Assembly: GCF_902170785.1 (NCBI RefSeq)
Contig: NZ_CABHYG010000009.1
Location: forward strand, 62,001-126,000
Direction: 5' to 3'
DNA from: Yersinia proxima
GTDB taxonomy: Bacteria; Pseudomonadota; Gammaproteobacteria; Enterobacterales; Enterobacteriaceae
Length of the DNA stretch: 64,000 nt
Part shown: piece after piece, positions 27,985 through 38,440 of the stretch
Layout of the letters: the number at the start of each line of letters is the position of its first letter
How positions within the stretch are numbered: position 1 is the first letter of the stretch
Made by a program: the position numbers and the translations under genes
Notes under the pieces: generated by a model
What the model was told of the DNA's origin: nothing
Databases searched by the model: none
Seen by the model: the letters and a program-made list of their open reading frames with translations, nothing else

Positions 27985-30936
27985 ATGATGCCCAATAACC
28001 TGTTCGGACTAAAAAGCCGCTATCCTTTACATATCCAGATTGCGGCTCTCTTTACGCTACTGATTGTCTCAATCGGTACTGTCATTATCATTTTTGGTCA
28101 TAGCCAGCTGACTAAATTGACTGAAATCAGCACCAACAGACAGTATCAAAAAACGGGCGAGGCAATCGCGGCAGAATTGGACGCTGTAACACGCCCCATG
28201 ATGATGTCTGTCAACATTCTTTCCAGTATGCAAATTACAGAGTTATCAACACTTGAACAGCGCATGGGTTTTGTCGGTAAATTTATTGAAATACTTAAAC
28301 AAAATGACTACGCCAGTGCCGTATATAGTGCCTATCCTAATGGTGACTTATTTATGTTGCGGCGTCTGACTGAAGCTAACCGTAAATTATTTCATGCCCC
28401 AGAGGGAGCCGAGTGGATGATTCAAAGCAATCGTTTCCTCGATAGCTTACCGGAAAAACGGTTTATTTATCTGAATGAAAAGCAGCAAGTCATTGCAGTT
28501 ATGCCTAGAGACAATGATAACTATGATCCCAGAAAGCGAGATTGGTTTATTTTAGCTTCAGCCAGCCCTGGCCTTATTACATCCCCTATTTATATTTTCA
28601 AGGGAACCGGTGAAGCGGGTTTTACCTATAGTCGTCGTTCTGAAAATAACCAATCCGTCATTGGATTAGATGTATCATTGGCCTCGTTATCCGAATTTTT
28701 AATAAGACAGAATCTGCCACCTGATAGCCAGGCCATTATTATCAACTCACGCGGGGAGATCATCGCGAGTTTACCTAAATCTAAAGAGACCTCGGTAAAC
28801 AGTACTCATTCAGATAAACAAATTCCGGTATTACAAACACTGCTAAATACCCGAGAAAATAGCTCCGGAGGTACTAATAACAATGACAGTAGCATCATGT
28901 TTGAAGCACAAGGAAAGCATTGGTACGGCTCAATCGTCGATATTGATAATGGTGGCAATGAATATCAGTTGGTTATCGCTACTCCAGCAAGCTATCTCAC
29001 CGCTGATGCGAATTCGATTCGCAATCACTCGACCTTTATTGCTTTTATTCTGCTAATGCTCAGCCTGCCACTTGTTTGGTATTTCTCACGGAAGATATCG
29101 AATCCACTTATTCGTCTTCGCCAGGATGCCGACTCCATAAGTAACTTACATTTCGAGGAACGTGAATCTGAGCACTCCATGATTGAAGAAGTCGATGAAC
29201 TACACAAATCAATGTCAAAAATGAAATCAACTCTAAAGCAGTTTATTTCAATGGGTAATATGTTGACAGCTGAAAACAACTTCTTCCGTCAAATGCAGGG
29301 GCTATTAAGTGAAACTACCGAAATAGCAGCGATGACTGGTGGCATTATATTTTTGGCAGATAAAAATGAAGGAACTTTCACGCCAACTGCATTTCGCTGG
29401 AATGGCGAAAATATCCCAGTAGCTGAAATGTCTTCATTGAGCATTAAAGAAGATAACTTCACCGCTTTTCAGCCAGTACTTGAAGGCACAACTATTGCTG
29501 GAACATTAAATAAAGAGAATATATTCAATCAACTGCAAGAATTTCTGCAGCCGTATTTACCATTACGCTTTGTTGCCGTCCCAATGAAAACACATGACCA
29601 GCAACTTTTAGGTTTCTTGTTGTTGTTCAATCCTTATCAATTAAATGCAGATCGCGAACGCTCTAAAATTCAGTTGGTTAACGCACTGGTTGGCAGTTTA
29701 TCTGTTTCTGTTGAGACTCAGCAGTTATTACAGGAGCAAAAAAACCTACTCAATGCATTTATTGAACTTATTGCGGGGGCCATCGATGCCAAAAGTGCTT
29801 ATACCGGCGGCCACTGCCAGCGAGTTCCTGAAATCACTAAAATGCTCGCCAGGGCCGCTGTAAATATCAAAGAAGGGCCTTTCGCCAACTTTAGTTTATC
29901 TGAAAATGAGTGGGAAGAACTGCATACAGCATGCTGGTTACACGATTGCGGTAAAATAACAACGCCCGAATTTGTTGTGGATAAATCGACAAAACTGGAA
30001 TTAATTTATGACCGTATCCATGAAATACGCATGAGATTTGAAGTGTTAAAACGCGAGAAAGAAATTGCCTTCTTACGTCGTCATGCCACCGTTAGTGCTA
30101 ATGAAACAGATCAACAAGCACTGGCCGAGGAATTACGTCAATTGGACGATGATTTTTATTTTATTGCCCACTGTAATATAGGTGGCGAATTTATGTCGGA
30201 TGAAGCAATAGCGCGTATTCAGCAAATTGCCGAGTATCGTTGGACTAGAACATTAGATGACAATGCCGGTGTTGCTCAGGAAGAACGCGAGCGCAAAGCG
30301 CGACAGCCAACAGTTTCCCTGCCGGTGCAAGAACCGATGCTGGCGGACAAAAAAGAACATTTCATCTACCGTGATAATAAAAATAAACGCCCAGAATATT
30401 ATGATTTCAAATTACCAGAACCGACTTTGCTTTATAACCGTGGTGAAATTTACAACCTCAGTATTCGGCGTGGTACATTGACCGAAGAGGATCGTTATAA
30501 AATAAATGAGCACATTATGCAGACCATTGTGATGCTCAAGAAACTCCCCTTCCCGCGCACAATGGCAAATGTTCCGACTATTGCCGGGGGACATCATGAG
30601 CGTATGGACGGTAAAGGTTATCCGTATCAGCTCACTTATAAACAGATGAGTATTCCTGTTCGAATGATGGCTATTGCCGATGTATTTGAAGCACTGACAG
30701 CTGCAGATCGCCCTTATAAGCAAGGAAAACTATTATCTGAAGCGCTCAATATTATGTTGAATATGGTGAATGAAAATCATCTGGATAGAGAGCTGTTTAT
30801 TCTGTTCCTCGAGTCTGGAATCTGGCATGAATATGCTATTGCTCACTTGAAGGCAGACAAAATCGATAATGTTGATATTTCGGTAATACTGCAAAAAATT
30901 GGCCATCAAAATATCGTACTGGCACAGAGCGCTTAG
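27985..30936 (+). CDS. membrane sensor HD-GYP domain protein (cyclic-di-GMP phosphodiesterase-like)
   Basis: Large inner-membrane signalling protein, about 983 residues. Order: membrane segment (about 17-37), periplasmic double-Cache-like sensor (about 40-345), second membrane segment near residue 350, HAMP linker, a GAF-like region (about 440-600), and a C-terminal HD-GYP domain. The catalytic residues are H612 (GHCQRVPEITKM), H655-D656 (HDCGK), H872-H873 (HHERMDGKGYP) and G880-Y881-P882, numbered from the ATG at 27979. About 215 residues separate HDCGK from HHE, against roughly 60 in RpfG-like domains, so a charged 150-residue insertion interrupts the fold. All metal ligands are kept, so activity is plausible. 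ATGs at 27979, 27985 and 27988 are all possible starts. Confidence 0.88.
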   Translation: MMPNNLFGLKSRYPLHIQIAALFTLLIVSIGTVIIIFGHSQLTKLTEISTNRQYQKTGEAIAAELDAVTRPMMMSVNILSSMQITELSTLEQRMGFVGKFIEILKQNDYASAVYSAYPNGDLFMLRRLTEANRKLFHAPEGAEWMIQSNRFLDSLPEKRFIYLNEKQQVIAVMPRDNDNYDPRKRDWFILASASPGLITSPIYIFKGTGEAGFTYSRRSENNQSVIGLDVSLASLSEFLIRQNLPPDSQAIIINSRGEIIASLPKSKETSVNSTHSDKQIPVLQTLLNTRENSSGGTNNNDSSIMFEAQGKHWYGSIVDIDNGGNEYQLVIATPASYLTADANSIRNHSTFIAFILLMLSLPLVWYFSRKISNPLIRLRQDADSISNLHFEERESEHSMIEEVDELHKSMSKMKSTLKQFISMGNMLTAENNFFRQMQGLLSETTEIAAMTGGIIFLADKNEGTFTPTAFRWNGENIPVAEMSSLSIKEDNFTAFQPVLEGTTIAGTLNKENIFNQLQEFLQPYLPLRFVAVPMKTHDQQLLGFLLLFNPYQLNADRERSKIQLVNALVGSLSVSVETQQLLQEQKNLLNAFIELIAGAIDAKSAYTGGHCQRVPEITKMLARAAVNIKEGPFANFSLSENEWEELHTACWLHDCGKITTPEFVVDKSTKLELIYDRIHEIRMRFEVLKREKEIAFLRRHATVSANETDQQALAEELRQLDDDFYFIAHCNIGGEFMSDEAIARIQQIAEYRWTRTLDDNAGVAQEERERKARQPTVSLPVQEPMLADKKEHFIYRDNKNKRPEYYDFKLPEPTLLYNRGEIYNLSIRRGTLTEEDRYKINEHIMQTIVMLKKLPFPRTMANVPTIAGGHHERMDGKGYPYQLTYKQMSIPVRMMAIADVFEALTAADRPYKQGKLLSEALNIMLNMVNENHLDRELFILFLESGIWHEYAIAHLKADKIDNVDISVILQKIGHQNIVLAQSA

Positions 30937-31022
30937 CAAGCAAAAAACAGAGAGTGATAGGGAGGCGTTAAGGTTATGCTGAACCAAATCATTTTATAGT
31001 CGACAATGTCGGGAGCAAATAC

Positions 31023-31625
31023 GTGTTCTACAGTTACGGTGAAACAGAGATTAGTCATCTTAAGCGACGGGATAAAAAGATGGCGGCAGCTATCGAACGA
31101 TTAGGAATGATTGCCCGTCCATTATCACCAGATTTATTTGCTGCACTCATCAGAAATATTGTTGACCAGCAAATTTCCGTTAAAGCGGCACTCACCGTTA
31201 ATGCACGTCTTATGGCATTAGTCGGCACGGTAACACCGATAACTATTGCCGCAACCCCGATAGACGTTATTCAGGGGTGCGGGATGACTATGCGTAAAGC
31301 CGGATACATTAAAGGTGCTGCCGATGCAGCACTTGATGGATCATTAGATTTATCGGCTATTGCTCAGTTACCGGATAATGAGGTCATTACACAGCTTTCG
31401 AACTTGAATGGTGTCGGTATCTGGACGGCAGAAATGCTGCTTATTTCGTCACTTTCTCGCCCTGATGTCCTCAGTTGGGGTGATTTGGCCATTCGCCGTG
31501 GCATGATGAATTTATATCGCCACAAAACGCTACCGCGCGAACGTTTTGAACGCTATCGCCGCCGCTACACCCCTTATGGCACAACCGCATCTCTATATTT
31601 ATGGGCGTTGTCCCATGAAGTTTAA
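31023..31625 (+). CDS. DNA-3-methyladenine glycosylase II-like (HhH-GPD) protein
   Basis: Base-excision-repair glycosylase, 200 residues, with the helix-hairpin-helix GPD fold. It has IVDQQISVKAALTVNARL and the hairpin LNGVGIWTAEMLLI, followed by the catalytic-aspartate motif SWGDLAIRRGMMNLY. It lacks the N-terminal domain of E. coli AlkA, as many bacterial paralogues do. The start is GTG with GGGAG 8 bases upstream. The stop codon TAA lies one base before the left 14-bp repeat of the prophage remnant; before insertion the gene would have met fliE tail to tail. Confidence 0.85.
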   Translation: MFYSYGETEISHLKRRDKKMAAAIERLGMIARPLSPDLFAALIRNIVDQQISVKAALTVNARLMALVGTVTPITIAATPIDVIQGCGMTMRKAGYIKGAADAALDGSLDLSAIAQLPDNEVITQLSNLNGVGIWTAEMLLISSLSRPDVLSWGDLAIRRGMMNLYRHKTLPRERFERYRRRYTPYGTTASLYLWALSHEV

Positions 31626-31639
31626 ACACCCATATTCAT
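31626..31639. repeat. left att-like direct repeat
   Basis: ACACCCATATTCAT, identical to 34396-34409. It starts one base after the stop codon of the glycosylase gene. Confidence 0.8.
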
Positions 31640-31907
31640 AATGTGTGATGGTTCAATTTAAGTTCGGATTAATTCTTGAAACATCAGGTATGGCGTATCT
31701 TACCGCAAAGTGTCTTGCCAATCGTTGGCATAGTTCGAGTTAGTTTTTGGTAATTTTTTGCCCATTTTTGCCCTATTCACTATGGCTCTCATACCGCCTA
31801 TCACAACAGATCCCCACTAAAGATGATCAACTGCCGCTCAGATGTTAAACTTCTCGCCATCAACAGAACCGGCAATTTATGTTGGATGCCGATAAATGGA
31901 AATAAGA

Positions 31908-33203
31908 ATGACTTCTGTAAAATCAAAGCTGCAAGTCGCTATGGTACTGGCTGTTACTGTAATCGTTTATGCAGCAATTGTGATTGTGGGGCTGCGCGGT
32001 TCGCTTAATGGGGACTTTGATCAGTACCTGGTTCCGGGTAAGTACGCTGCACCTGCAAATATCGCCACACATGGATTTGATAACAGAGTATTTTACGAGA
32101 AATCAGCTGGGTGGGATGGTCAATTTTACTACTATCATTCTGATGACCCGCTGCTATTAAAGGATACGGTAGAGCACATAGATATGCCTGCATATAGAGC
32201 GCAGCGAGTAGGCATTCCTGCAATAACATATGTTTTATCAAGACTAACAGGTCAAGACTGGGTATCACCAAAATTCTACTTTACTGTTACGGTTGGATTG
32301 CAGCTTATAGCTGCTTATATGCTGGCAACATTCCTCATTAGTCGTGGATATTCGGCCTGGTATGCACTCGTTTGGGCTGTAGGAGGGTCAACATTATATA
32401 CCGTTGGATTTGGCTTTATAGATGGCAGCGCTGATGCATTGATAATAATCTCGCTGATACTGTATGCAAATAAAAATTTAAAACTATACATTCTTGCAAT
32501 GTCTTTAGCTGTCCTATCCAAAGAGTCTTATGTTCTAATTCCCGTAATCCTTGCTTTTTCACAATTTATTTCACACACACATAGATTTATATTCACCAGG
32601 CATTCATTTAAATTATCACAGACAATAAAAAGTACACTACCTAACTGTATTCCACCAATTATATTGTTATCTTGGATTTTATATCTTCACTTACATTTAA
32701 ATACAAATCACCTTTTTGATAAATCTAGCTCAGGAATGCTGAACCTACCATTTAAAGATATGATTCATTACATAATGGCTGGTATTAATGGTGAAACACT
32801 TAGCTATCTTGGTGAAATTAGAAAAAATTTCCCTTCATATAGGATATCTATCGGAGTATCAATTTTCTCGATAATGTTAATAACGGTATTTTCAATATCC
32901 ATTCACAGAGTAGTTACCAATAGTAATAACTTTATTCTAAATCCAATTTCATTAGGTGTTTTACTATGCACCATAACATTGTCTGCGGTATATATGTGCC
33001 TCGGAGCTACTCAGCTATGGGAACCTGTCGGGTTCGTTAAGGCATCATCGCTAGTCATAGGCATGTATTTGATATATTCCGCGATTAGCAAAGAAAAAGT
33101 TACCTACATAGTGCTTATTCTTAGTATTGTATTTTCTATATACAGCGCTGTAGTGGTTACGGACAGAAATGGACTGCCACCATTTGTTAGACATGTAAGC
33201 TAA
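31908..33203 (+). CDS. polytopic membrane protein, probable GT-C-type glycosyltransferase
   Basis: Inner-membrane protein of 431 residues with about 10 hydrophobic segments, beginning at residues 7-28. I do not recognise a named family. The first periplasmic loop has acidic motifs NGDFDQYLVPGKY and GWDGQFYYYHSDDPLLLK, and a later SKESYVLIPVILAF segment; such Asp-rich first loops are characteristic of GT-C glycosyltransferases that use lipid-linked sugars. Serotype-converting phages carry such enzymes next to their att site, which is where this gene lies. The partners gtrA and gtrB are absent. The second half is very AT-rich. I chose the ATG at 31908, with GGAA 8 bases before; 31896 is an alternative. 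Confidence 0.65.
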   Translation: MTSVKSKLQVAMVLAVTVIVYAAIVIVGLRGSLNGDFDQYLVPGKYAAPANIATHGFDNRVFYEKSAGWDGQFYYYHSDDPLLLKDTVEHIDMPAYRAQRVGIPAITYVLSRLTGQDWVSPKFYFTVTVGLQLIAAYMLATFLISRGYSAWYALVWAVGGSTLYTVGFGFIDGSADALIIISLILYANKNLKLYILAMSLAVLSKESYVLIPVILAFSQFISHTHRFIFTRHSFKLSQTIKSTLPNCIPPIILLSWILYLHLHLNTNHLFDKSSSGMLNLPFKDMIHYIMAGINGETLSYLGEIRKNFPSYRISIGVSIFSIMLITVFSISIHRVVTNSNNFILNPISLGVLLCTITLSAVYMCLGATQLWEPVGFVKASSLVIGMYLIYSAISKEKVTYIVLILSIVFSIYSAVVVTDRNGLPPFVRHVS

Positions 33204-33264
33204 TAACTCCCCTACATTTTCAGCAGGGGGAATTATCAGATAGGAGCGCCTAATTGACTCCATG

Positions 33265-34209
33265 TTATTGATCCTGATGCCCCAAACAAATAAACTGTAT
33301 CTTTCTGGCAGAGTCGACCCCAACAGATGCAGAGCTAAGCCCTAAGTTACCACCGGTAACAATGGTGCAAACTGACGCAAAAGTAGGCGTAATAACATAC
33401 CCATTAAAGGTATTTTTAAAACTAGACATATTAGATACTGACCAAGTGGCATAATAGTAATCCATATCACTTATTATAGGTAAGTTAGTCGGAATTACTG
33501 CAATCGTATACTGTTAATCAGTTTCAAACGCATCCTTTATATTGCCAACAAATATGTTTTTACCAATACGGTGCCCGATTCCGTTAGCTTGAGCCCCTAT
33601 TGCGCAATTAAACAATCAGCTTTCACCTATAGCAACTTTTCTAGACAAAGCACCAGTCTGTATTCCGGATGCTGTAGGCAATATATTCTCAACATTAGCT
33701 TGGATGGTAGCATTACCTCTAACGGCATATACATCATGATTTTTAACGTTTTTACACACCTGATTTGTTACTGTGTTTCTACTAGAATTTACAGATGGAT
33801 TTATATATCAACCGTACTCTAAGTAGACTGCAACATTTCTGTGAAAAGTTGCATTGCTTGTAGTGCCCTCAAGCTGTATTCCGCTAAACCCTAACACAGG
33901 AGGTCAAGCACCAGTTAAGTCGGTACCGCCCCATAAGGCCAAAAGTGATTGTTCATTATTTTATGAGTATCCACCCCTTGATATATATAACACTTTGCCC
34001 ATCTAGCCCGTTGCATAAAACTCTTTGCAGTGAAAAACCAGAGGAAATAAGATCATGTTGAAACCAACTATTAAATTTCCAGTAACTGTAATATATTCAC
34101 CTTCTGCAAGAATTGCAGTTCCGATAAAGTTTACAGCGTTAATTTGTGGGGCCGTAGTTGTTGATGGGGTGATTGCAACTCCAGCAAACCCAGCAAACCC
34201 ATCATTCAT
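33265..34209 (-). pseudogene. beta-helix/tail-spike-like protein remnant with six internal stops
   Basis: One minus-strand reading frame of 315 codons runs from 34209 to the final TAA at 33265-33267. It is interrupted by six stops: TAG 34003-34005, TAA 33961-33963, TGA 33904-33906, TGA 33808-33810, TGA 33616-33618 and TAA 33514-33516, without any frameshift. Read through, it gives a coherent protein: TAILAEGEYITVTGN, LGFSGIQLEGTTSNATFH, NHDVYAVRGNATIQANVEN, GHRIGKNIFVGNIKDAF. The repeated short strands with Asn/Gly turns suggest a right-handed beta-helix as in phage tail spikes or pectate-lyase-like proteins. The 5' end is lost where it meets the integrase remnant (about 34190). Confidence 0.65.
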
Positions 34210-34356
34210 TGCATCACAGATGGGTCACGCATCAGCACCGATGGTTTTCTCTGTTTATGGTGAGTGGATCCAGACAATAATGATGAACAAATGGCATTAA
34301 TCAATGCTAAATTTTCTCAAAATGCCCCACTCATGCCCCATAAGAAAATTGGATAG
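34199..34356 (+). pseudogene. tyrosine integrase, C-terminal remnant with frameshift
   Basis: From 34199 the plus strand encodes PSFIASQMGHASAPMVFSVY GEW, which is the end of a phage tyrosine recombinase: the GH motif (H codon 34226-34228) and the nucleophile Tyr codon (34256-34258 or neighbouring). At about 34267 the frame shifts by one base and continues DPDNNDEQMALINAKFSQN APLMPHKKIG to the TAG at 34354-34356, a tail common in enterobacterial phage integrases. The N-terminal nine tenths are missing. The position 40 bases inside the right att-like repeat is normal for an integrase gene. Confidence 0.75.
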
Positions 34357-34391
34357 TAGTTTTTACTATATAATTCAATGGCATTACTCAC

Positions 34392-34709
34392 TCAGACACC
34401 CATATTCATGACATCTTGATAAGCTGCTACCAGTTTATTACGTACTTGAATACCGAGTTGTAAAGATACAGACGACTTCTGCATATTCACCATCACGTCA
34501 TTTAGGCCGACGCCGGGCACACCTAATTCAAAATTTTGCGCCAATGTACGGGCGGTCTGCTGATTTTCACTGATTTTACCAATAGCGGCTTTTAATTCGC
34601 TGGCGAAACCGGCCTCAGCGGGCAGTGTTTTCGCTGAACCAGATGCTTGCAATGCCGTGACCTGTAATTGCTGTAAAACCCCTTCGATACCTTGAACAGA
34701 CATGTTCAT
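34392..34709 (-). CDS. fliE: flagellar hook-basal body protein FliE
   Basis: MS-ring/rod junction protein, 105 residues, exported by the flagellar system and joining FliF to the proximal rod. It starts MNMSVQGIEGVLQQLQVTAL and ends KLVAAYQDVMNMGV, with the family's FSELLKAAI-like FASELKAAIGKI and PGVGLNDVMVNMQKSSVSLQ. It is divergent from fliF as in other enterobacteria. Its last four codons coincide with the right repeat of the prophage remnant. Its present stop TGA (34392-34394) comes from the element; the protein end is nevertheless restored. Confidence 0.95.
   Translation of the reverse strand: MNMSVQGIEGVLQQLQVTALQASGSAKTLPAEAGFASELKAAIGKISENQQTARTLAQNFELGVPGVGLNDVMVNMQKSSVSLQLGIQVRNKLVAAYQDVMNMGV
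34396..34409. repeat. right att-like direct repeat inside fliE
   Basis: ACACCCATATTCAT, identical to 31626-31639. On the minus strand it supplies the fliE codons ATG AAT ATG GGT and the first two bases of the last Val codon. Confidence 0.8.
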
Positions 34710-35032
34710 CCCCAGAGTGCGTCAGTAGGTTAATAACTGCGTGACAAATTCGCTCGCAAAAGCGGTTGTTCACCATTCAAACAGCTATCACTTTTTTCAG
34801 GATGACACCCTAACACATCATTTTTGCGCTAAAGCGGCTAAATAGACGTAAAAATACCGGCTTATTGAGCCATCGAATTTCCACTTACAGCAAATAATGG
34901 CATGCCGATAAAAGGGGATATCAGCTATTGATGCGTTATCGCTCACAGCATTTGGGAGTCTGTTTTGTTCCAACACATTAGTTACATAAAAAATACTAAC
35001 TCAAACGTTATTCAGCTTGGCCAAGGACGTGT
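34710..35032. promoter_or_regulatory. fliE-fliF divergent regulatory region (323 bp)
   Basis: No gene. It must contain back-to-back class 2 promoters for fliE and fliF. A sigma-28 minus-10-like GCCGATAA at 34904-34911 is present, but the base group 15 upstream is TTAC rather than TAAA, so use by FliA is doubtful. FlhDC sites could not be assigned by eye. Confidence 0.5.
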
Positions 35033-36736
35033 ATGAATGCCTCGATAACTGGCGGTGAAAATCGTGAGAACACCTTTACGACGACACTGGCACGCCTACG
35101 CGCGAATCCAAAAATCCCACTGCTGATTGCTGCGGCTGCGGCGGTCGCTATTATTGTCGCGCTGATGTTATGGGCTAAAAGCCCGGATTATCGCGTCCTT
35201 TATAGCAACCTGAATGATCGTGACGGTGGTGATATCGTCACGCAGTTGACGCAACTGAATATTCCCTATCGCTTCGCTGATAATGGCGGAGCATTGTTGA
35301 TCCCGGCAGATAAAGTACATGAGACCCGTCTGCGTCTGGCTCAACAAGGTTTACCTAAAGGTGGTGCAGTAGGCTTTGAACTACTGGATCAGGAAAAATT
35401 TGGCATCAGCCAATTCAGCGAACAAGTCAACTACCAGCGTGCGTTGGAAGGCGAACTGGCACGAACGATTGGCACACTCGGCCCGGTCTTAAATGTGCGG
35501 GTGCACTTAGCCATGCCGAAACCGTCACTGTTCGTCCGTGAGCAAAAATCACCAACAGCCTCTGTCACACTCGCCCTACAACCAGGTCGTGCTCTTGATG
35601 ATGGTCAAATCAACGCCATTGTCTATATGGTTTCCAGCAGTGTGGCAGGTTTACCGCCAGCTAACGTCACCGTTGTCGATCAAACCGGACGTCTGTTGAC
35701 ACAATCGGATAGCGCCGGTCGTGATTTAAATGCAGCGCAACTCAAATTTACCAATGAAGTTGAAAACCGCTTCCAGCGCCGCATTGAAACTATCCTCGCA
35801 CCGATGGTGGGCAGCGGTAATGTTCATGCACAAGTCACCGCACAAGTTGATTTTGCCAGCCGCGAGCAGACTGACGAAGAGTACAAACCGAATCAGGCTG
35901 CTAACCAAGGGGCTGTGCGCTCTCAGCAAGTCAGTACCAGTGAACAACTCGGTGGGAGCAATGTCGGGGGTGTTCCAGGGGCATTATCCAACCAGCCTTC
36001 AGCCACACCGGTCGCACCGATTGAAGTGCCTCAGGCAACCCCTGCGGCAGGTGCTGCAGCAAATACCGCTAACGCAGCGAATCGCCCGGCAACCGCAGCC
36101 AGACAAACCGCGACGTCCAGCAATAGCCGTCATGACCAAACCACCAACTTCGAAGTTGACCGTACTATCCGCCATACCCAGCAACAAGCCGGCATGGTGC
36201 AGCGCCTCTCTGTTGCCGTGGTGGTTAATTACGGCAGCGATAAAGCGGGTAAACCTATCGCGCTGAGCAAAGATCAATTAGCGCAGGTGGAATCGCTAAC
36301 GCGCGAGGCCATGGGTTTCTCCACGGTACGCGGCGACACATTAAATGTGGTGAACACACCGTTTAATGCCACTGACGATGCTGGCGGCAGTAACTTGCCA
36401 TTCTGGCAACAACAGTCGTTCTTTGATCAGTTGCTGAATATTGGTCGCTACTTGCTCATCTTACTGGTGGCGTGGATCTTGTGGCGCAAACTGGTGCGCC
36501 CACTGATAGCTAAGAAGCAAGTGGCGGATAAAGCAGCAGCATCAGTCAATAACATTGTTCAGGCTGCACAAACCACTGAAACAGCGAAACAAACTAAAGA
36601 AGAGCTGGCCCTGCGTAAGAAAAATCAGCAACGAGTCAGTGCTGAAGTTCAGGCCCAGCGTATACGCGAACTAGCGGATAAAGACCCACGTGTTGTCGCG
36701 CTGGTTATCCGTCAATGGATGAGTAATGACCAATGA
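35033..36736 (+). CDS. fliF: flagellar MS-ring protein
   Basis: Inner-membrane ring protein, 567 residues, the base on which the C-ring and export gate assemble. Membrane segments lie near residues 28-48 ([19 protein letters not shown]) and 455-475 ([15 protein letters not shown]). The periplasmic ring-building motif domains include [16 protein letters not shown] and [21 protein letters not shown] disordered Ala/Thr/Pro stretch occurs near 320-370. The C-terminus ([20 protein letters not shown]) binds FliG. AAGGA lies upstream of the ATG. The stop overlaps the fliG start (ATGA). Confidence 0.95.
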
Positions 36737-37725
36737 GCCTGACCGGAACTGAAAAAAGCGCCATCATGCTGATGACTCTGGGTGAAGACCATGCCGCCGA
36801 GGTGTTTAAACACCTCTCCTCGCGTGAAGTCCAACAGCTCAGTACCACCATGGCGAGTATGCGTCAGGTTTCTCACCAACAGTTGGTTGATGTATTGGCT
36901 GAGTTTGAAGACGATGCAGAGCAATATGCCGCACTGAGTGTGAATGCCAGCGATTACCTGCGCACCGTGCTGATAAAAGCATTGGGGGAAGAACGCGCCT
37001 CCAGTCTGTTGGAAGACATTCTGGAATCACGCGAAACCACCAGCGGCATGGAAACCCTCAACTTTATGGAGCCGCAGATGGCGGCCGATCTGATCCGCGA
37101 CGAGCATCCGCAGATTATCGCCACTATTTTGGTTCATCTGAAACGCGCTCAAGCGGCCGATATTCTGGCACTGTTCGACGAACGCCTGCGTAACGATGTC
37201 ATGTTGCGTATCGCCACCTTCGGCGGCGTTCAACCGGCGGCATTGGCTGAATTGACCGAAGTGCTGAACAACCTGCTCGATGGTCAGAATCTCAAACGCA
37301 GCAAAATGGGCGGTATCCGCACTGCGGCTGAGATTATCAACCTGATGAAGACTCAGCAGGAAGAGACGGTTATGGACGCGGTACGCGAATACGACGGTGA
37401 ATTGGCTCAGAAAATTATCGACGAGATGTTCTTGTTCGAGAATTTGGTCAGTGTCGACGACCGCAGCATCCAGCGTTTACTGCAAGAGATCGACAACGAG
37501 TCGCTACTGATAGCCTTGAAAGGTGCCGATCAGGCACTGCGCGAGCGCTTCCTCAGCAACATGTCGCTGCGGGCAGCAGAAATTCTGCGCGACGATTTGG
37601 CCACCCGTGGGCCGGTACGTATGTCTCTGGTCGAAAACGAACAGAAGGCCATCTTGCTTATCGTCCGTCGTTTGGCGGAAAGCGGCGAGATAGTCATCGG
37701 CGGCGGCGAGGATATCTATGTCTGA
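36733..37725 (+). CDS. fliG: flagellar motor switch protein FliG
   Basis: C-ring protein, 330 residues, linking FliF to FliM and contacting the stator to make torque. The N-terminal domain starts [19 protein letters not shown]; the middle domain contains [13 protein letters not shown] (the EHPQR-like motif); the C-terminal charged helix [20 protein letters not shown] carries the torque residues. The start overlaps fliF by four bases and the end overlaps fliH by eight, so the three genes are coupled. Confidence 0.96.
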
Positions 37726-38440
37726 TAGGATTAATACCCTGCCCTGGCAACCCTGGTCATTGAATGACTTTGCCAGCCAACCTGAGCCTACCGCGGCCGC
37801 TGCGCCGCCGGATATCAGCATGCTGTTTACTGATGAGCCCAGAGAGGACGGCGAACCAGCAGAAGGTGATGAACAGCAGATATTGATGAACCTGCAACTC
37901 GAAGCCGAGAAGCAGGGTCGCCAGCAAGGATTTGCCAAAGGGTTACAAGAGGGCCTGGATAAAGGTTACCAAACCGGTCTGGAAGAGGGGCATCAGCAAG
38001 CGCTGGCCGATGCTGAGAAACAATTGGCCCCTATCACCGCACACTGGCAAACCTTGGTCAGCGACTTCCAGAATACCCTTGATGCGCTGGACAGTGTCAT
38101 TGCCTCACGGCTAATGCAAATGGCATTGGCGGCAGCCAAACAGATTCTGGGTCAACCGGCGATTTGTGATGGCACCGCGTTGCTGGCACAAATTCAGCAA
38201 ATGATTCAGCAAGAACCCATGTTTGCCGGTAAACCGCAATTGCGTGTCAATCCTAATGATCTCGCCGTGGTTGAGCAGCGCTTAGGCTCGACCTTGAGTC
38301 TGCATGGCTGGCGTTTGTTGGGCGATAGCCAAATTCACCCAGGTGGCTGCAAAGTCAGCGCTGAAGAAGGTGATTTGGATGCCAGTCTGGCGACGCGCTG
38401 GCATGAATTATGCCGTCTGGCAGCGCCGGGAGAATTATGA
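37718..38440 (+). CDS. fliH: flagellar export ATPase regulator FliH
   Basis: Cytoplasmic stator of the export ATPase, 240 residues, which dimerises and holds FliI inactive or at the C-ring. It starts with the Trp-containing segment [12 protein letters not shown] used for docking. It has the Gly-rich repeat [26 protein letters not shown] (GxxxG helix dimer) and a C-terminal domain that binds FliI. GAGG lies 6 bases before the ATG, inside fliG. Confidence 0.95.

What the first reader, a model, noticed from the sequence alone, without database searches (positions are those of the whole stretch)
31626..34409. Prophage remnant integrated at the 3' end of fliE, with att-like repeats still readable
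The exact 14-bp direct repeat ACACCCATATTCAT occurs one base after the glycosylase stop and again across the last codons of fliE. Joining the outer flanks at this repeat rebuilds an empty site in which fliE ends ATG AAT ATG GGT GTT TAA; with the element it ends ATG AAT ATG GGT GTC TGA, encoding the same residues. So the element restores the coding end of its target gene, as site-specific phages do at tRNA genes, but here the target is a flagellar structural gene. The integrase remnant lies 40 bases inside the right repeat. I know of no described phage using fliE as attB, though I cannot search.
Basis: partly seen in the sequence, partly recalled or inferred. Interest (0 to 1): 0.78.

Follow-up and report, generated by a model that had tools for sequence, protein, structure and literature searches.

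The report
Phage remnant at flagellar gene fliE
The two ends of an old bacterial virus still sit at the last codons of a flagellar gene in a Yersinia genome; related viruses use this same docking site across gut bacteria, so it is a real but essentially known kind of thing.

Summary
Observation and main interpretation hold. The 14-bp repeat (31626-31639, 34396-34409) flanks the two ends of a deleted prophage: attachment arm, intact 435-aa cell-surface gene, 3' part of a P22-type tailspike gene, last 54 residues of a tyrosine integrase, then fliE's last codons. A relative (G002) has the gapless empty site; two others carry full-size prophages (about 51 and 55 kb) with intact integrase at this place and the repeat at both ends. 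Of 25 Yersinia genomes, 9 show this element family at fliE.

The site is not special to Yersinia. Related integrases abut fliE's 3' end in 13 of 35 loci from a genome scan, and in at least 7 of 5,426 E. coli genomes. Two isolated phages carry a matching attP; with E. coli lysogens they place strand exchange at or next to GTGATG, so the phage supplies FliE's last residues. MG1655 keeps such a remnant (intG, 'cryptic prophage PR-G'), and a 2013 Cronobacter table lists a prophage at fliE, so 'no described phage' does not hold. What I did not find in print: mapped att sites, genus-wide occupancy, and evidence that fliE targeting is not one integrase clade.

The parts
31023..31625 (+). host flank: HhH-GPD DNA glycosylase gene
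   Evidence: Pfam PF00730 1.2e-12; same gene abuts fliE directly in G002
31626..31639 (+). glycosylase-side copy of the att core (14 bp)
31640..31782 (-). glycosylase-side attachment arm of the phage, with tandem GGGCA-type motifs near 31753-31776
   Evidence: aligns with the same end in G013, G024, G012 and viral contig L059; role as integrase-binding arm inferred
31896..33203 (+). open 435-codon membrane-protein gene related to the AZOBR_p60025 cell-surface glycopolymer family; phage-borne accessory (conversion-type) gene
   Evidence: NCBIfam NF046093 4.4e-37, 127.5 bits against a cut-off of 150; two 51% paralogues in own genome, one beside a tailspike gene
33239..34179 (-). broken 3' part of a P22-type tailspike gene (matches residues about 264-640 of the relative; head-binding domain missing)
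   Evidence: tblastn with the L177 tailspike, 2e-62, more than one frame, 6 stops in the main frame; the relative has PF09008 Head_binding 4e-59
34193..34356 (+). integrase remnant: last 54 residues in two frames, then the stop
   Evidence: 89-96% identical to the intact 429-aa integrases of G013 and G024
34318..34395 (.). fliE-side attachment arm (TGCCCCA motifs at about 34321-34342)
   Evidence: conserved in G012, G013, G024, G003, G014 and less well in other genomes; role inferred
34396..34409 (+). fliE-side copy of the att core; encodes the last codons of FliE on the minus strand
34392..34709 (-). target gene fliE, open to its normal C-terminus
   Evidence: PF02049 1.5e-26

Best explanation
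A temperate, P22-like phage with a Fels-1/wrbA-type tyrosine integrase inserted by site-specific recombination between its attP and an attB made of the last codons of fliE. Its attP carries a copy of those codons plus a stop, so fliE stayed whole. Later a large internal deletion (joint at about 34180-34193) removed nearly everything between the tailspike gene and the last 54 codons of the integrase gene, leaving an immobile remnant with both att ends and one open accessory gene. Shown: repeats, empty site, full-size relatives at the site, conserved arms, identity of the pieces. Inferred: the deletion, and that the arms bind integrase. The exchange point mapped on E. coli relatives (at or next to GTGATG) is taken over to Yersinia by analogy.
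For: repeat; empty sites; G013 and G024: 55.5- and 50.8-kb fliE-glycosylase intervals with the repeat at both ends and an intact 429-aa integrase next to fliE; a 20-kb stretch of each matches terminase, lysis or head genes of phages; integrase remnant; arms conserved; tailspike remnant; on own-genome contig C15 the same order of accessory gene, tailspike and, about 39 kb on, integrase; 13 of 35 integrase loci at fliE; E. coli prophages at fliE; 72, 73, 79 (isolated phages with fliE-type attP).
Against: No excision, attP circle or induction was seen for the window element, and none is expected with a broken integrase. Remnants in G003 and G019 lack the second core, and in G006 and G014 the glycosylase-side arm is partly or almost wholly lost. 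The short fragments alone have only weak PHROG hits (best 2e-6, a family of unknown function). The 435-aa gene has no match among 50,697 phage records, nor in the other 29 genomes searched. That the deletion was one event is not shown.
Confidence: 0.96

Rival explanations
1. The element is a phage satellite or small island (own integrase plus cargo) and was never a full phage.
For: Intervals with a remnant at this site are mostly small (1.4-4.6 kb in 6 Yersinia genomes, the window included) and hold diverse ORFs.
Against: The window piece holds a tailspike remnant in the position and orientation seen beside the paralogue on contig C15 of the same genome; full-size prophages with the same arms and integrase exist at this site.
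Confidence: 0.03
2. The accessory gene and tailspike piece came in separately (homologous recombination or another route) next to an older integrase remnant, so the interval is a mosaic and not one deleted phage.
For: 440 bp on the glycosylase side (31749-32188) are 84% identical to another locus of the same genome (L177), while the integrase piece is 89-96% identical to fliE-type phages; phage mosaicism makes either route possible.
Against: Both outer arms are of the fliE-phage type, and the order arm, accessory gene, tailspike, integrase is the order on contig C15.
Confidence: 0.12
3. The 14-bp repeat is chance, or a shared end of converging genes, with no integration.
For: Both copies lie at gene ends.
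Against: Empty site, full-size prophages and conserved arms.
Confidence: 0.005

Closest known systems
E. coli K-12 MG1655 cryptic prophage PR-G (intG, b1936)
   Same: Integrase remnant directly against the fliE 3' end with the fliE core retained; 5,246 of 5,426 E. coli genomes hold at least 80% of the 536-bp intG-fliE stretch
   Different: E. coli type core; one core copy only in the 11-kb stretch read, and nothing like the tailspike or accessory gene is annotated there
Prophage at fliE listed for one Cronobacter genome (PMC3680222, one table passage seen)
   Same: Prophage at fliE
   Different: Sequence not examined here; no att mapping in the passage seen
Phages CobraSix and IdasGreatGrand (records OK499971, PP925829)
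   Same: Integrase family and fliE-type attP beside the integrase
   Different: Hosts Enterobacter and E. coli; integrases 52-54% identical to the Yersinia one; lysogeny at fliE not documented in what I saw (no paper naming CobraSix)
e14 at icd in E. coli K-12
   Same: Prophage supplies the C-terminal codons of its protein-coding target, with conservative residue changes (passages of PMC6379469 and PMC11148124)
   Different: Other gene, and a longer duplicated segment (163-165 bp)
Fels-1 / PPwrbA / Gifsy-2 integrases
   Same: Intact Yersinia relative is 50-54% identical to them over nearly the full length; the Fels-1 record notes similarity to the 933W integrase
   Different: Other attB sites (wrbA by record name; the rest recalled, not tested)

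Membership tests
Site-specific prophage remnant at a gene 3' end | Direct repeat of target gene end at both borders | tested here: met
Site-specific prophage remnant at a gene 3' end | Precise empty site in relatives | tested here: met
   G002 vs window, 414 columns without gap; G010 vs G024
Site-specific prophage remnant at a gene 3' end | Integrase gene next to one att site | tested here: met
   remnant in window, intact in G013 and G024
Site-specific prophage remnant at a gene 3' end | Target reading frame kept after insertion | tested here: met
   window; last codons to the stop in 12 genome-scan loci and 2 E. coli lysogens
Site-specific prophage remnant at a gene 3' end | Excision or integration activity | not testable with these tools
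   no reads, no bench; window integrase is broken
P22-like (short-tailed) phage | Tailspike with P22-type head-binding domain | tested here: inconclusive
   window keeps only the part matching residues 264-640; the relative on C15 has PF09008
P22-like (short-tailed) phage | P22-type portal, scaffold, coat, ejection genes | tested here: inconclusive
   absent in the window remnant, so cannot be judged there; such genes are annotated in the E. coli UTAK-1 prophage at fliE
Fels-1/wrbA-type tyrosine integrase | Homology over the full length | tested here: inconclusive
   intact relative in G013 is 50-54% identical to Fels-1, PPwrbA and Gifsy-2; the window keeps only the C-terminal 54 residues
Fels-1/wrbA-type tyrosine integrase | Catalytic residues of the tyrosine recombinases | not tested
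   invariant columns were listed for four relatives but not mapped to known catalytic residues
AZOBR_p60025 cell-surface glycopolymer family | Score above curated cut-off of NF046093 | tested here: not met
   127.5 bits against 150: related, not filed as a member; fold model too poor to use (pLDDT 36)

The most novel reading that the evidence does not exclude
The end of fliE is an attractor: one integrase subfamily has come to target it more than once, independently, across Enterobacterales. Each insertion rebuilds both FliE's C-terminus and a fresh attB, so the site is used repeatedly, and the swap of FliE's last codons and 3' flank could tune flagellar assembly in lysogens.
Probability: 0.15. 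Interest if true: 0.65.

Novelty: new member of a known kind. Interest (0 to 1): 0.3.

Why it matters
It adds a well-resolved protein-gene attB (attP, hybrid sites, empty site, re-use beside older remnants) to the list of prophage sites. It places the small intG fragment at fliE in E. coli in a wide family, and marks fliE as a place to look when flagellar loci differ between related strains. Integration into protein genes is itself common: 43.4% of genomic islands in the TIGER/Islander resource (passage of PMC12424338).

Tried and rejected
Structure of the 435-aa protein: AlphaFold with 3 sequences gave mean pLDDT 36, so no fold search was made. PHROGs on the short fragments: weak only. 435-aa protein against phage records: no match. 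Promoter and terminator scan of the element: no terminator-like site (shuffles 1.9), 4 promoter-like sites (shuffles 11.7). The four Yersinia genomes with an interval of about 0.53 kb (G004, G016, G018, G023) were first suspected of holding a remnant; they carry a small secreted-looking ORF, read by eye, and no second core; the same ORF is in G003 and G019, so these four were not counted as phage. One clade of fliE integrases was tested and rejected, with the caveat of long branches. Tree rows: L090, L091 and L094 were dropped as broken, L092 and L093 (Marinobacter, 27%) were not used; L062 and L067 (contig ends) carried the label 'other' in the count of 6 changes and were left out of the count of 5 and of the clade test's rival rows. 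One search found fliE in 12 of 35 loci; L067 was missed there because its contig ends 71 bp past the integrase, but its last bases read as a fliE end, so I count 13; L062 (45 bp left) cannot be judged. Literature: searches, of which I saw listings; passages (or their absence) in the papers, and the outline of PMC6379469. A prophage at fliE is in print. I found no paper that maps it, but I opened only 4 of the 26 papers listed, and subscription papers are mostly not held.

Full report
Observation. The repeat is real and is the only exact 14-mer direct repeat in 29000-38000. Its right copy encodes the last codons of fliE (34392-34709, minus strand) and its left copy follows the glycosylase stop directly (31625/31626).

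Genus. The window is G000:C8:62001-126000. I compared the fliE-glycosylase interval in 25 genomes of the genus, the window's own included. Full-size: G013 (55.5 kb) and G024 (50.8 kb). Remnants with the core at both ends: G000 (the window), G012, G006, G014. Remnants with the fliE-side end only: G003, G019. Contig break with a core on each contig (one mismatch each): G017. No element: G002, G005, G007, G009, G010, G015, G020, G021, G022 (matched gene ends 3-117 bp apart). An interval of about 0.53 kb with a small ORF and no second core: G004, G016, G018, G023. Not comparable because the glycosylase is elsewhere or was not found: G001, G008, G011. So 9 of 25 carry the element family. The G002 empty site aligns with the window's outer flanks without a gap, 32 mismatches in 414 columns. 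The core is not invariant: most relatives differ from the window's 14-mer by one base.

Anatomy. From the glycosylase side: core; an arm of about 140 bp shared with G013, G024, G012 and viral contig L059; an open 435-codon membrane-protein gene; a tailspike remnant on the other strand; the last 54 integrase residues; the fliE-side arm, which overlaps the integrase end; core. On contig C15 of the same genome the order is the same: a 580-aa paralogue (51%) beside a 640-aa tailspike with a P22 head-binding domain, and an integrase of the same family (55%, no stops) about 39 kb further on; I read only the two ends of that stretch. The window element therefore looks like the two ends of such a prophage after loss of the middle. 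The tailspike piece matches residues about 264-640 of the C15 protein in more than one frame, with 6 stops in the main one; the integrase piece is in two frames. The accessory gene alone is open. It is shorter than its paralogues (435 against 580 and 583 aa), and I cannot tell whether that is natural. GC of the element is 0.384 against 0.464 for the window.

Full-size relatives. G013 and G024 have identically placed 429-aa integrases, 90% identical to each other, whose ends lie a few dozen bases from fliE. A 20-kb inner stretch of each matches lysis, terminase or head genes of phages. Viral contig IMGVR_UViG_2706794642_000003 shows a prophage end followed at the core by a second element end (L059): tandem use of the site.

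Beyond Yersinia. With the integrase alignment, 35 loci came from one scan of the genome collection. In 12, fliE's 3' end lies 42-77 bp past the matched integrase end, and in one more (L067, Lelliottia) the contig end carries a fliE end: 13 of 35, in Yersinia, Buttiauxella, Citrobacter, Enterobacter, Lelliottia, Pseudenterobacter, Pantoea and an Enterobacterales MAG. Next to other members I identified five other genes: aldehyde dehydrogenase (L081) and GFO/IDH/MocA oxidoreductase (L061) within 45 bp; FAA hydrolase (L066), 2-hydroxyacid dehydrogenase (L078) and zinc alcohol dehydrogenase (L084) some 200-600 bp away. In E. coli, 7 of 5,426 genomes hold a match across the whole integrase-plus-fliE query (a lower bound, since only one query was used and 40 rows were listed). 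Two were read and hold full-size prophages between fliE and yedK. At their far end the core is followed by an older integrase fragment, which in MG1655 touches fliE and is annotated intG, cryptic prophage PR-G. So new phages entered at the core that an older remnant had left in place.

Mechanism detail. Isolated phages CobraSix and IdasGreatGrand carry the sequences CATGTGATG-GGCATGCAAGTTTAG and CATATGATG-TCCATGCAGGTGTAG beside their integrases; CharmingMan, SaltyDalty and KPP5665-2, looked at in the same way, do not show this core. In the two E. coli lysogens the fliE side reads host up to GTGATG and then phage-like; the far side reads phage-like up to TGATG and then AGCATGCAGGTGTAG, as in MG1655. 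Exchange thus falls in or next to GTGATG, the Val-Met codons, and the phage supplies the last four residues and the stop. In 30EVA1 this makes the end MGMQV where the host end (far copy, and MG1655) reads MSMQV. The lysogens' own phages are not the two isolates, so this mapping rests on close similarity. Residue-changing restoration has a precedent in e14 at icd (passages). A cassette inserted in fliE abolishes K-12 motility (passages of PMC4476827), so an intact fliE plausibly matters to lysogens (inference).

Origin of targeting. On a tree of 35 integrases, the 14 fliE rows need 6 changes of label, or 5 with the two contig-end rows not counted, and one clade is rejected (p-AU 3.5e-7). Long branches are present and direction cannot be read, so repeated gain is one reading; switching away from an ancestral fliE site is not excluded.

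Novelty. A prophage at fliE appears as a table entry in a 2013 Cronobacter paper (PMC3680222, one passage seen), and PR-G is in the MG1655 record. The finding is a new, well-resolved member of a known kind.

Noticed in passing
G000:C15:424000-438000 (L177) and C15:465648-466904 (L204): A probable prophage of about 40 kb between mtn genes, with a paralogue of the window's accessory gene at one end and an integrase at the other; the sequence past this integrase matches the record start of phages vB_YenM_06.16-1 and 29.18 by eye, so these phages probably use this site.
   Followed up: partly
G000:C4:15000-29000 (L178): Another 51% paralogue of the accessory gene, near an acyltransferase-like gene, an integrase-like C-terminal fragment and icd (named by eye): possibly a remnant at the icd site.
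   Followed up: no
L046, L047 and L050-L053: A conserved ORF for a small secreted-looking protein (about 102 aa) lies between fliE and the glycosylase gene in 6 of 25 Yersinia genomes; function unknown.
   Followed up: no
L046 787-3846; L048 1047-1626: Other remnant intervals at fliE hold a 1020-aa autotransporter-like ORF (G019) and a toxin-antitoxin-like ORF pair (G006), named by eye from the translations.
   Followed up: no
L059 1072-1902: Prophage end followed at the core by a second element end without a visible integrase in a viral contig: accretion at the site.
   Followed up: partly
L077 and L091 (Pantoea septica contig NZ_MLJJ01000006.1): Two integrases of the family 8.6 kb apart, the second broken and next to fliE.
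   Followed up: no
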